Position numbers and translations under genes: made by a program. The notes below the pieces were generated by a model. It worked only from the letters and a program-made list of their open reading frames with translations, was not told the origin of the DNA and did not search any database. A stretch of 64,000 nucleotides of DNA, taken from Actinomycetota bacterium. Lineage in GTDB: Bacteria; Actinomycetota; Thermoleophilia; Solirubrobacterales; 70-9. The stretch spans positions 1 through 64,000 of the forward strand of contig JAFDWC010000001.1 of NCBI GenBank assembly GCA_018268655.1, in the 5' to 3' direction. Every line of letters begins with the position of its first letter. Within the stretch, counting starts at the first letter, position 1. Positions 6,145-9,039 of this stretch are shown piece by piece.

Positions 6145-6678
6145 CTACGGGATCAGGAACGAGAACTGGGCGTCGAGGGGCGTCCCGTCGTTCCAGATCC
6201 GCACCTCGAGCTCACCGGCGTTGCAGTCGATGTTCGACGACCTGATCTGGGCGATCGTTTTGCTGGTACCGCTGTTGGCGAAGTCGGCGCTGACGAGAAG
6301 GCTCGCGGTCGTCGGGTTGATGCCGGCGGCAGGGGTGATGCAGTAGATGCCTGTCGCCGCGTGGCGGACGGTCGCGTTCTTGCTGCGAGCCGCGATCAGG
6401 GTGCCCGCTTCGTTGGCGGTCTCGCCGTACGCCCGGGCCGAGCCGGGGGCGCCCGGGGCGCCGGCGGGCCCCGCCGGACCGACCGGTCCGGTCAGCGTCG
6501 CTTTGGCCTTCTGACTCAGTTTGGCCGGGGTCACCGCTTCCTTCTTCAGCGCCCTGGTGCCGATCGATTCCTTCGCGAACTGGGAGGCGGCAAAGGCGCT
6601 GCCGCCACCGACGACAAGGACGAGAGCGAGGGTGGAGACGACGTTGGCGTAGGTGAGGCGAGGGCGGAACCGGGTCAT
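6145..6678 (-). CDS. Exported collagen-like protein of Thermoleophilia type
   Basis: Hypothetical exported protein (177 residues). The N terminus RLTYANVVSTLALVLVVGGG followed by AFAAS is a signal-anchor type I know from many small Solirubrobacterales proteins. Next come a lysine/alanine-rich stretch (IGTRALKKEAVTPAKLSQKA), a short collagen-like run GPVGPAGPAGAPGAPGS (about 66-82) and a beta-rich C-terminal domain of about 95 residues with two cysteines (YCITPAAG, NIDCNAGE). It probably localises to the cell surface. Function unknown. A 24-bp element upstream (6741-6764) is repeated before the MauE-redoxin operon, suggesting shared control. Confidence 0.75.
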   Translation of the reverse strand: MTRFRPRLTYANVVSTLALVLVVGGGSAFAASQFAKESIGTRALKKEAVTPAKLSQKAKATLTGPVGPAGPAGAPGAPGSARAYGETANEAGTLIAARSKNATVRHAATGIYCITPAAGINPTTASLLVSADFANSGTSKTIAQIRSSNIDCNAGELEVRIWNDGTPLDAQFSFLIP

Positions 6679-6740
6679 GACGGCCTTTCGGATCGAGACG
6701 TACTAGTCCGGCCGCAGGCTCCCCGGCGACCGCCGCGCCC

Positions 6741-6764
6741 GCAACGTGGTCGGACCGAAGGATT
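6741..6764 (-). promoter_or_regulatory. Repeated 24-bp element, copy 1
   Basis: GCAACGTGGTCG-G-ACCGAAGGATT on the plus strand, 23 of 24 bases identical to 9016-9039. It lies 63 bases upstream of the collagen-like gene start, in the same orientation relative to the downstream gene as copy 2. The whole gap 6679-6953 otherwise holds only the doubtful ORF at 6772-6915. Likely a shared promoter or operator; which sigma factor or regulator uses it is unknown. Confidence 0.5.
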
Positions 6765-6953: not shown

Positions 6954-7556
6954 TCAGCAGCAGGTGCAACCGATCACCCCGGCGCAGCAGATCGCCCCGC
7001 CTTCGACGTTGGCGCAGACGCAGCAGGCGTCGCCGCCGTAGCAGCAGAGCGTGTCCGTGCACTTGGTGGTCCCCGCGGCGCAGGCCGTTTCCCCGGCGCC
7101 GGGGATCGTCGGGCTCGGCTGCACTTCCGGCGGCGGGGCCGGATTGGAGCAGATCTTGGTCCGGCAGAGTTCGAGTTCGTAGATGAACTGCTGCCGGGCC
7201 TGGGCCTGGCAGGAGGTGTCCCTGGCGGCGGCCGCGGGCTTCATCGCTGGAGACTGCTTCGGCGGCTTTTTGCCCTTCTTGCCTTTCGGCGCCAGCAGCG
7301 AGCGCCCGCTCTGGTGTCCGAGGCAGTAGTTGAGGAAGGTGCCCCGCTGGTTGCTCTTCGTCGCCTCGGAGAAGCAGAGGAGGCAGGTGTCCGCCGCCAG
7401 TTTCTGCCGGACCCGGTTGGCCGCGTAGGTGGTCGCCCCGGGGGCGAAGGGCAGCACCGCGGTCGCCAGGGCGGCGCCCTTGACGACGGTGCGGCGGCTG
7501 CTGCGCGCGTCCGCAGCGGTGGCGACGTGCTTGGAGAAGCGGTCGAACCAGTGCAT
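6954..7556 (-). CDS. Tat-exported cysteine-rich protein (18 Cys)
   Basis: Hypothetical exported protein (200 residues). MHWFDRFSKHVATAADA is followed by the twin-arginine signal SSRRTVVKGAALATAVL and a signal-peptidase-like AxA site. The mature part has six spaced cysteines (including CLLC), a lysine/proline linker (PKGKKGKKPPKQ), and a C-terminal knot of twelve cysteines in 42 residues, with CC doublets in TLCCYGG, DACCVC, AICC and a terminal TCC. The layout recalls the methylamine dehydrogenase light chain (long Tat leader, disulfide-rich body). It lacks the tryptophans needed for a TTQ cofactor: the only Trp is residue 3. ATG overlaps the preceding stop as TGATG, giving translational coupling. 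Function unknown; the likely client of the upstream MauE-redoxin. Confidence 0.8.
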   Translation of the reverse strand: MHWFDRFSKHVATAADARSSRRTVVKGAALATAVLPFAPGATTYAANRVRQKLAADTCLLCFSEATKSNQRGTFLNYCLGHQSGRSLLAPKGKKGKKPPKQSPAMKPAAAARDTSCQAQARQQFIYELELCRTKICSNPAPPPEVQPSPTIPGAGETACAAGTTKCTDTLCCYGGDACCVCANVEGGAICCAGVIGCTCC

Positions 7557-7945
7557 CAGCGGATCCTCTCGCCGGCGCGGGCGAGGTCGGCGCCGCCGCG
7601 GGCGATCCGCCGTTTGGCGTTGCGAAGTTCCTTTTCGGCGGTCTCGCCGTTGGTTTCGTGGAGCGCCTGGAGGAAGTTGCCGAGCCCGGCGTCGAGCCGG
7701 GTCAGGGCGGCCAGGGCTTCGTCCTGGGGCACGGTGGTCCTGGTCTCGATTTCCTCGATCTGCCGCGAGAGCCCGGAGTAGAAGTCGCGCATCCGTTCGA
7801 GCGCGGCGATCGTCGCCGGGCTCGCCGCTTCCTCGTCCGAGGTCGCCGCCCGCAGCCCCGCACCCAGCCTGTTCGCCGCCCTGCCGAGGGTCGTGCTCGG
7901 GGTCTCGATCAGAGCCTTGATCCGGGCCGCGCCCGCGTCCGCCAT
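7556..7945 (-). CDS. Small helical hypothetical protein in MauE-redoxin operon
   Basis: 129-residue soluble, charged, probably all-helical protein without a signal peptide or cysteine. Recognisable stretches are MADAGAARIKALIETPSTTL, ALERMRDFYSGLSRQIEEIE and ALHETNGETAEKELRNAKRR. It matches no family I recognise. Both ends are coupled by TGATG overlaps, to the MauE-redoxin gene upstream and to the Tat Cys-rich gene downstream, so its role is very probably tied to that pair, for example as a chaperone holding the exported protein before Tat transport. That role is inference only. Confidence 0.75.
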   Translation of the reverse strand: MADAGAARIKALIETPSTTLGRAANRLGAGLRAATSDEEAASPATIAALERMRDFYSGLSRQIEEIETRTTVPQDEALAALTRLDAGLGNFLQALHETNGETAEKELRNAKRRIARGGADLARAGERIR

Positions 7946-8982
7946 CAGCCACTCCCCCCCACCTGGACCAACCGCAGCGGCTCCGCCGAGGCGGCGAGCA
8001 GCGGCGCGACCGCGGTGCTGCCCACGGCCGGCTCGCCGGCGACCCGCCCTTCCCGGTCGAGCACCAGCGCGCCGGGGAAGCCGTTGATGCCGAGCGCCCG
8101 CGCCCGCTCGAAGTCGTCGAGCAGAAGCACCGGGCCGAGCTCGTGCTGCGCCGCCTTGGCGGCGACGGCGGCGGGCTCGCCGAGGCTGATCACGACCGGC
8201 CGCGGATCGGCCAGCGGGTCGCGCTGCAGCCGCGCGACCTCCGCCAGCAGCGGCTCGCAGGCGCCGCAGCCGGGGTCGCTGAAGAAGAGGATCAGGCCGC
8301 GGCCGTCGTCCAGCAGCTCGTCGAGCTCGACCACGTCGCCGTCGAGCGTCGGCAGCGCGAAGCCGGGCGTCAGCTCGCCGACCGGGAGGCCGCGCGGGGC
8401 GCCGCCGCCGCTGGCGCCGGGGCCATCCGCGGCAACCGCCGCCAGCTCGGCGACGAGCCGGCCGTTCTGCTTCATCAGCTGCCAGGAGAAGGCGAGGTTG
8501 ACCGCCGCTGCCAGCAGCGCCAGGCCAGCCAGGATCCCGACCGCGGCGGTCGCGTCGAGGTCGCCGATCCAGGCCAGGGCGCCCGGGCCCGGCTCGCTCC
8601 AGCCGGCGACGGCGACGAACCCGGCGAGGGCCATGAGGGCGACATTGCGGGCGAGCGTCCAGCGGCTGACGTGGCTCGGGGCGAGCGCCCCGAAGCAGTT
8701 GCACTCGACCTCCTCGCCGCTGCGGAGGACGCGGGCGACGCCGACCGTGAAGGCGGCGAGCAGGAGGAAGGCGCCGAGGCCGGCCCAGGGCGCGGTCGCC
8801 GCCGGTAGCAGGCCGAGCGCGATCGCCAGCTCGGCCAGCGGCAGGGCGATCGCGAGCGGCCTCCGCAGCGCCGCGCCGACCCCGAACTTGGCGAGCGTCG
8901 CCTCGGTCCGATCGCGTCGCGCCAGCTTGCCGACGCCGGCGACCACGAAGATGGCGGCGAGCAGAAGCCGGGCGACGAGCAC
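7945..8982 (-). CDS. MauE/DoxX-like membrane protein fused to redoxin domain
   Basis: Fusion of a four-helix MauE-type membrane domain and a periplasm-facing redoxin (345 residues). The N-terminal half has VARLLLAAIFVVAGVGKLAR and the MauE cysteine motif ECNCFGAL, then helices to about residue 160. The C-terminal half is an AhpC/MauD-like redoxin (GELTPGFALPTLDGDVVELD, then FFSDPGCGACEPLLAEVARL with a CxxC site, and NGFPGALVLDREG with the cis-Pro region). MauE and MauD are needed for disulfide formation in the methylamine dehydrogenase light chain; here they are one protein. GTG at 8982 is preferred because the frame's upstream start (9030) lies inside the repeated 24-bp element. It is coupled to two downstream genes. 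Confidence 0.85.
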   Translation of the reverse strand: MLVARLLLAAIFVVAGVGKLARRDRTEATLAKFGVGAALRRPLAIALPLAELAIALGLLPAATAPWAGLGAFLLLAAFTVGVARVLRSGEEVECNCFGALAPSHVSRWTLARNVALMALAGFVAVAGWSEPGPGALAWIGDLDATAAVGILAGLALLAAAVNLAFSWQLMKQNGRLVAELAAVAADGPGASGGGAPRGLPVGELTPGFALPTLDGDVVELDELLDDGRGLILFFSDPGCGACEPLLAEVARLQRDPLADPRPVVISLGEPAAVAAKAAQHELGPVLLLDDFERARALGINGFPGALVLDREGRVAGEPAVGSTAVAPLLAASAEPLRLVQVGGSG

Positions 8983-9015
8983 GATCGAGAACGGTCCCGC
9001 CCTCAGCCGGTCGGC

Positions 9016-9039
9016 GCAACGTGGTCGCACCGAAGGATT
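9016..9039 (-). promoter_or_regulatory. Repeated 24-bp element, copy 2
   Basis: GCAACGTGGTCG-C-ACCGAAGGATT, differing from 6741-6764 at one base. It lies 34 bases upstream of the GTG at 8982 and about 50 bases past the hydrolase stop. Two near-identical copies in front of two neighbouring genes, both for exported or export-related proteins, suggest a regulatory site. Confidence 0.5.

What the first reader, a model, noticed from the sequence alone, without database searches (positions are those of the whole stretch)
6954..9039. Three-gene MauE-redoxin / helical protein / Tat-exported 18-Cys protein module
A fusion of a MauE-type membrane domain (ECNCFG motif) and a CxxC redoxin is coupled by TGATG overlaps to a 129-residue helical protein and then to a Tat-exported protein with 18 cysteines, twelve of them in the last 42 residues. 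Known MauE/MauD pairs mature the disulfides of the methylamine dehydrogenase light chain, which is also Tat-exported and Cys-rich. No methylamine dehydrogenase gene is visible and the client lacks the tryptophans for TTQ. This looks like a self-contained disulfide-maturation system with a dedicated client of unknown function.
Basis: partly seen in the sequence, partly recalled or inferred. Interest (0 to 1): 0.75.

Follow-up and report, generated by a model that had tools for sequence, protein, structure and literature searches.

The report
MauE-redoxin pair with Tat-exported client
Three overlapping genes in a soil actinobacterium encode a membrane thiol-redox enzyme, a small helical protein and an exported protein packed with 18 cysteines, and a survey of relatives shows that this enzyme type repeatedly sits next to different cysteine-packed exported proteins, so it probably makes their disulfide bonds, perhaps before they leave the cell.

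Summary
On the minus strand, a MauE-redoxin fusion, a 129-residue helical protein and a 200-residue Tat-signal protein with 18 Cys (12 in the last 42 residues) are joined by two TGATG overlaps. Three other Solirubrobacterales genomes keep the same gene order and all 18 Cys. A second MauE-redoxin locus in this genome, and many fusions elsewhere in the class, also sit beside Tat-signal Cys-rich proteins, of unrelated families (PLA2-like, disintegrin-like, PqqD-fused, others). With one automatic filter: 25 of 43 MauE loci against 0 of 18 redoxin-only loci; 3 of 7 held-out loci; about 1 per 570 kb of background. Two loci fuse enzyme and client in one ORF. So the MauE-redoxin is most likely a portable disulfide-making unit with interchangeable clients. 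This works like MauE/MauD on MauA, but the client is not MauA (no TTQ tryptophans, no Pfam match). Charge patterns (35 of 35 MauE proteins, Paracoccus MauE included; ResA-type controls mostly reversed) predict that the redox centres face the cytoplasm, so folding would precede Tat export. That, and disulfide formation itself, is inferred, not shown. A 2020 study already noted mauE beside Cys-rich genes in Streptomyces. Client function is unknown.

The parts
7945..9030 (-). MauE-redoxin fusion gene (361 aa by longest ORF; more likely start GTG at 8982)
8611..8985 (-). MauE membrane domain, with CxCFG motif (ECNCFG) in the loop after TM3 (about 8692-8703)
8038..8382 (-). Redoxin domain (AhpC-TSA / ResA-like), CxxC (CGAC) at about 8257-8268
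7556..7945 (-). 129-aa helical protein, predicted five-helix bundle, no Cys, no signal peptide, no family
6954..7556 (-). 200-aa Tat-signal client, 18 Cys
7419..7556 (-). N-terminal HWFD motif plus twin-arginine signal (SSRRTVVKGAALATAVLPF...)
6957..7082 (-). C-terminal Cys-rich domain, C-x6-C-x4-CC-x5-CC-x-C-x8-CC-x5-C-x-CC
9015..9039 (.). 25-bp element (24/25 identical to 6740-6764) just upstream of the likely fusion start; the two copies are the only ones in the held genome

Best explanation
The MauE-redoxin fusion is a membrane-bound thiol-oxidising unit dedicated to the co-encoded Tat-signal Cys-rich protein. The MauE domain (CxCFG) would pass electrons from thiols towards the membrane carriers. 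The redoxin CxxC would form or rearrange disulfides in the client. The client's multi-disulfide fold then passes Tat quality control and is exported. The small helical protein probably binds the client or its N-terminal region. Shown here: anatomy, conserved gene order, invariant cysteines, statistical linkage of MauE-redoxin to Tat-signal Cys-rich proteins, and enzyme-client fusions. Inferred: disulfide chemistry, direction of electron flow, side of the membrane, role of the helical protein.
For: Same three genes in order in four genomes with all 18 Cys kept. Second MauE-redoxin locus in the same genome with its own different Tat-signal Cys-rich protein. 25/43 MauE loci against 0/18 redoxin-only loci have a Tat-signal Cys-rich ORF within 1.5 kb, Fisher p 8e-6; with the same filter left unchanged, 3/7 loci from outside the class, and 1 weak hit in 260 kb of random sequence. 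Clients elsewhere include folds that are disulfide-bonded in animals: PLA2G12 E 1e-13, disintegrin E 5e-35. Enzyme and client in a single ORF without a plausible internal start in two loci. The Paracoccus mau cluster has the same order mauE-mauD-mauA, and MauA begins with a similar FD...SRR Tat region. TatC is present.
Against: No biochemistry. About 40% of MauE loci have no detected client (some lie at contig ends, others do not). The genome also has a VKOR, so a general disulfide oxidase exists. CC and CxCC motifs would also suit metal binding. The middle protein is not conserved as one family between loci. The filter was tuned on loci already seen; only the 7-locus set was held out. Loci are related by descent, so counts are not fully independent.
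Confidence: 0.66

Rival explanations
1. The redox work is done outside, after export: the redoxin domain faces the cell exterior like ResA or DsbA and oxidises or proof-reads the client once Tat has delivered it.
For: The redoxin domain resembles ResA structures, E 1e-7; extracytoplasmic action is the usual expectation for disulfide oxidoreductases (general knowledge). Some Tat cargo can be exported without preformed disulfides (PMC6708511).
Against: All 35 scorable MauE proteins have K/R in the loops that would then lie outside. ResA-type control redoxins mostly show the opposite pattern around their TM. In the enzyme-client fusions the RR-hydrophobic segment follows the redoxin, which fits redoxin inside and client outside.
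Confidence: 0.28
2. The client is a metal-binding (metallothionein-like) exported protein and the MauE-redoxin keeps its cysteines reduced for metal loading before Tat export.
For: CC, CxC and CxCC motifs in the C-terminal domain; Tat is the route for cofactor-loaded proteins (PMC6708511).
Against: Clients of other MauE-redoxin loci include PLA2-like and disintegrin-like proteins, whose cysteines form disulfides in animals. Spacing of Cys differs freely among clients.
Confidence: 0.14
3. The client is a RiPP-like precursor: its Cys-rich tail is the product, released after modification, and MauE-redoxin is a tailoring enzyme.
For: decRiPPter listed three Streptomyces families with mauE (one also with mauD) and precursors of at least 8 Cys as candidate RiPPs (PMC7794033). 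In genus g36 the Cys-rich partner carries a PqqD-like peptide-chaperone domain.
Against: Here no protease, exporter or other tailoring enzyme was recognised next to the trio, export is by a Tat signal, and the whole 200-aa protein, not only the tail, is conserved.
Confidence: 0.12
4. The neighbourhood is incidental: MauE-redoxin serves general thiol homeostasis and the Cys-rich gene is a passenger.
For: Many MauE loci lack a detected client.
Against: Linkage statistics with controls, TGATG overlaps, single-ORF fusions, conserved order in four genomes.
Confidence: 0.05

Closest known systems
MauE/MauD maturation of methylamine dehydrogenase light chain MauA (Paracoccus denitrificans mau cluster, NC_008688)
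   Same: MauE followed by a CxxC redoxin, then a Tat-signal Cys-rich protein; same gene order E-D-A; same five-TM charge pattern; MauA N-terminus has a comparable FD...SRR region.
   Different: MauE and redoxin are fused here; a helical gene is inserted; the client has no Me-amine-dh_L match, no TTQ tryptophans and a different Cys pattern; no light-chain gene was found in the genome.
decRiPPter candidate families with mauE/mauD homologues in Streptomyces (PMC7794033)
   Same: mauE (one family also mauD) near a gene for a Cys-rich protein (at least 8 Cys), without other mau genes.
   Different: Only listed as candidates in Streptomyces; no Tat client, helical partner, fusion, linkage statistics or topology described in the passages read.
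ResA/TlpA thiol-disulfide oxidoreductases
   Same: Redoxin fold and CxxC.
   Different: ResA-type controls mostly carry K/R before the TM (redoxin outside) and have no Tat-signal Cys-rich neighbour.
VKOR/DsbB disulfide generators
   Same: Small helical membrane partner of a thioredoxin-fold protein, proposed source of disulfides; fusions with Trx domains are known (general knowledge).
   Different: Different family (MauE/DoxX); predicted opposite face for the cysteines; this genome has its own VKOR.

Membership tests
MauE (PF07291) | Profile match over the curated cut-off, five TM helices, CxCF motif | tested here: met
   96.1 bits against cut-off 27; five TM and CxCFG
MauD (TIGR02661) | Equivalog score of at least 188.6 bits | tested here: not met
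   32.2 bits: related redoxin, not MauD proper
Methylamine dehydrogenase light chain MauA (PF02975) | Profile match | tested here: not met
   No match for the client or anywhere in the held genome; the positive control in Paracoccus gives E 3.6e-54
Methylamine dehydrogenase light chain MauA (PF02975) | Two tryptophans for the TTQ cofactor | tested here: not met
   Only W3, in the signal region
Tat substrate | Twin-arginine, hydrophobic core and polar end; Tat translocase in the genome | tested here: met
   Conserved RR plus hydrophobic stretch; TatC present. Actual export not testable here
MauE-MauD type disulfide-maturation system | The enzyme pair is required for disulfides of a co-encoded exported Cys-rich protein | not testable with these tools
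   Needs deletion and mass spectrometry; only genetic linkage shown
RiPP cluster | Short precursor, modification enzyme, leader protease or exporter | tested here: not met
   No such genes recognised beside the trio in the window; client is a 200-aa Tat-signal protein

The most novel reading that the evidence does not exclude
MauE/MauD-type systems, the classical one of Paracoccus included, are cytoplasm-facing disulfide factories: they oxidatively fold Cys-rich proteins inside the cell so that the Tat translocase, which prefers folded cargo, can export them. Bacteria would thus have a natural counterpart of engineered cytoplasmic disulfide systems, with interchangeable clients including PLA2-like and disintegrin-like proteins.
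Probability: 0.4. Interest if true: 0.82.

Novelty: new variant of a known kind. Interest (0 to 1): 0.62.

Why it matters
How Cys-rich proteins acquire disulfides and still pass the Tat gate, which favours folded cargo, is not settled, and the exact roles of MauE and MauD have stayed unclear (as PMC7794033 notes, citing a 1997 study). This locus and its relatives turn that into a testable rule: a portable enzyme unit with swappable clients, in lineages without methylamine dehydrogenase, and with a predicted side of action opposite to ResA-type enzymes. It could also give a bacterial tool for making disulfide-rich proteins through Tat.

Tried and rejected
AlphaFold of the Cys-rich client from four sequences: pLDDT 45, pTM 0.24, uninformative, so no fold search was made. 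Helical protein: a five-helix bundle, pLDDT 79; the PDB fold search gave nothing below E 0.045 and only generic bundles. Client profile against PDB: only weak, probably chance matches, the best ones over the signal region. Pfam, NCBIfam and PHROGs: nothing for client or helical protein. Plasmids, phages and viral contigs: no relatives, so no sign of a phage or plasmid element. Homology of helical proteins between loci: only weak (E 0.0018 to the fused helical domain of the C8 type, probability 15%; none to the G142 type). The G087 match is spurious. A methylamine dehydrogenase reading was rejected. Counting third-position changes only in codons of identical residues is circular as a selection test; the invariant Cys with changing Cys codons is the usable part. 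The 25-bp flanking repeat has no flanking counterpart among the largest repeats shown for six related loci, so an insertion boundary is not supported.

Full report
WHAT IS THERE. On the minus strand the window holds three genes in a row: a MauE-redoxin fusion (7945-9030, start more likely 8982), a 129-residue helical protein (7556-7945) and a 200-residue protein with a twin-arginine signal and 18 cysteines, 12 of them in the last 42 residues (6954-7556). Both junctions are TGATG. MauE scores 96.1 bits against a cut-off of 27, and the redoxin part matches AhpC-TSA and, more weakly, MauD (32 bits against a cut-off of 188.6). The other two proteins have no family in Pfam, NCBIfam or PHROGs.

CONSERVATION. 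Each has the same three genes in the same order. The three relatives are 32-40% identical to the window's protein and keep all 18 Cys (one pair is shifted by a gap in the alignment), an N-terminal HWFD motif and the RR signal. G114 writes 8 of its Cys as TGT where the window uses TGC only, so the residue, not the DNA, is what is kept.

A GENERAL PAIRING. The same genome has a second fusion on contig C8: MauE-redoxin plus a C-terminal helical domain, followed directly by a Tat-signal-like protein with 14 Cys of a different pattern. Searching the order and the class with fusion profiles and reading neighbours shows Tat-signal Cys-rich partners of many kinds: other WFD-type proteins (14-25 Cys), long proteins with tens of Cys, PLA2-like proteins, and PqqD-like domains fused to a Tat signal and a Cys-rich tail. 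Outside the class a 613-residue partner with 78 Cys matches disintegrin (E 5e-35) and another matches PLA2G12 (E 1e-13).

TEST OF THE PAIRING. An automatic filter (ORF with RR or a close variant plus hydrophobic core, at least 9 Cys, coding-like GC3, within 1.5 kb) finds a partner at 25 of 43 MauE loci, 23 on the same strand, against 0 of 18 loci of redoxins without MauE, and none in 312 kb farther away (Fisher p 8e-6). The filter was adjusted after seeing some loci, so it was then applied unchanged to seven loci from outside the class: 3 of 7, against one weak hit in 260 kb of random regions. Two further loci (L066, L115) carry enzyme, RR-hydrophobic segment and Cys-rich part in a single ORF with no plausible internal start.

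WHICH SIDE OF THE MEMBRANE. Counting K and R in loops, all 35 scorable MauE proteins have more in loop 1, the CxCF loop and the segment after TM5 than in loops 2 and 4 (density 0.170 against 0.075, Wilcoxon p 8e-10; the proteins are related, so p is nominal). Paracoccus MauE, taken from the annotated mau cluster, shares this pattern, and Paracoccus MauD has its charges after its single TM. ResA-type control redoxins with a TM mostly show the reverse, K/R before the TM. By the positive-inside rule the CxCFG loop and the redoxin face the cytoplasm. This fits Tat: PhoA and antibody fragments were exported only when disulfides formed beforehand, though some proteins pass without them (PMC6708511). 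It is a prediction, not a measurement.

MECHANISM PROPOSED. Shown: gene order, conservation, linkage, fusions. Inferred: the redoxin oxidises or isomerises client thiols, MauE reoxidises it towards the membrane carriers, the helical protein escorts the client, and Tat exports the folded product. What the client does outside is unknown; its structure could not be predicted (pLDDT 45).

COMPARISON WITH THE KNOWN. The nearest system is MauE/MauD acting on MauA, which has the same gene order. The client is not MauA: no profile match, with a working positive control, and only one Trp, in the signal region. The pairing was partly foreseen: decRiPPter listed three Streptomyces families with mauE, one also with mauD, and Cys-rich precursors, as candidate RiPPs (PMC7794033). 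New here are the Tat clients of many families, the controls, the enzyme-client fusions and the topology prediction. Verdict: new variant of a known kind.

LIMITS. The held genome is 79% complete. Many MauE loci lack a visible client. Helical proteins of different loci are not clearly homologous. The genome also has a VKOR.

Noticed in passing
6740-6764 and 9015-9039: A 25-bp element (24/25 identical, same orientation), the only two copies in the held genome, flanks the trio and lies 61 bp and about 32 bp upstream of the likely starts of two minus-strand units (the 177-aa gene 6145-6678 and the fusion). Probably a shared promoter or operator element; an insertion boundary is less likely.
   Followed up: partly
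L066 3977-5308 and L115 1089-2987: Single ORFs that join MauE, redoxin, an RR-hydrophobic segment and a Cys-rich domain, i.e. enzyme and client in one chain.
   Followed up: partly
L052, L053, L054, L064, L109, L111: In one genus, PqqD-like domains (near TIGR04353, HPr-rel-A system) are fused to a Tat signal and a Cys-rich tail near MauE-redoxin: a possible peptide-maturation system that uses Tat.
   Followed up: partly
L150 3034-4875: 613-aa Tat-signal protein with 78 Cys matching the disintegrin family (E 5e-35), 139 bp before a MauE gene cut by the contig end.
   Followed up: no
L107 3748-4578 and L149 6342-7124: Tat-signal PLA2G12-like proteins next to MauE-redoxin fusions in two distant lineages.
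   Followed up: partly
L056, L057, L060: Split MauE plus redoxin with a 10-Cys Tat-signal protein beside conjugation-like and recombinase-like genes, in two copies in one genome: probably on an integrative element.
   Followed up: no
L007/L010 (G114:C18): A second, lone Cys-rich C-terminal domain of the window's family at a contig end.
   Followed up: no
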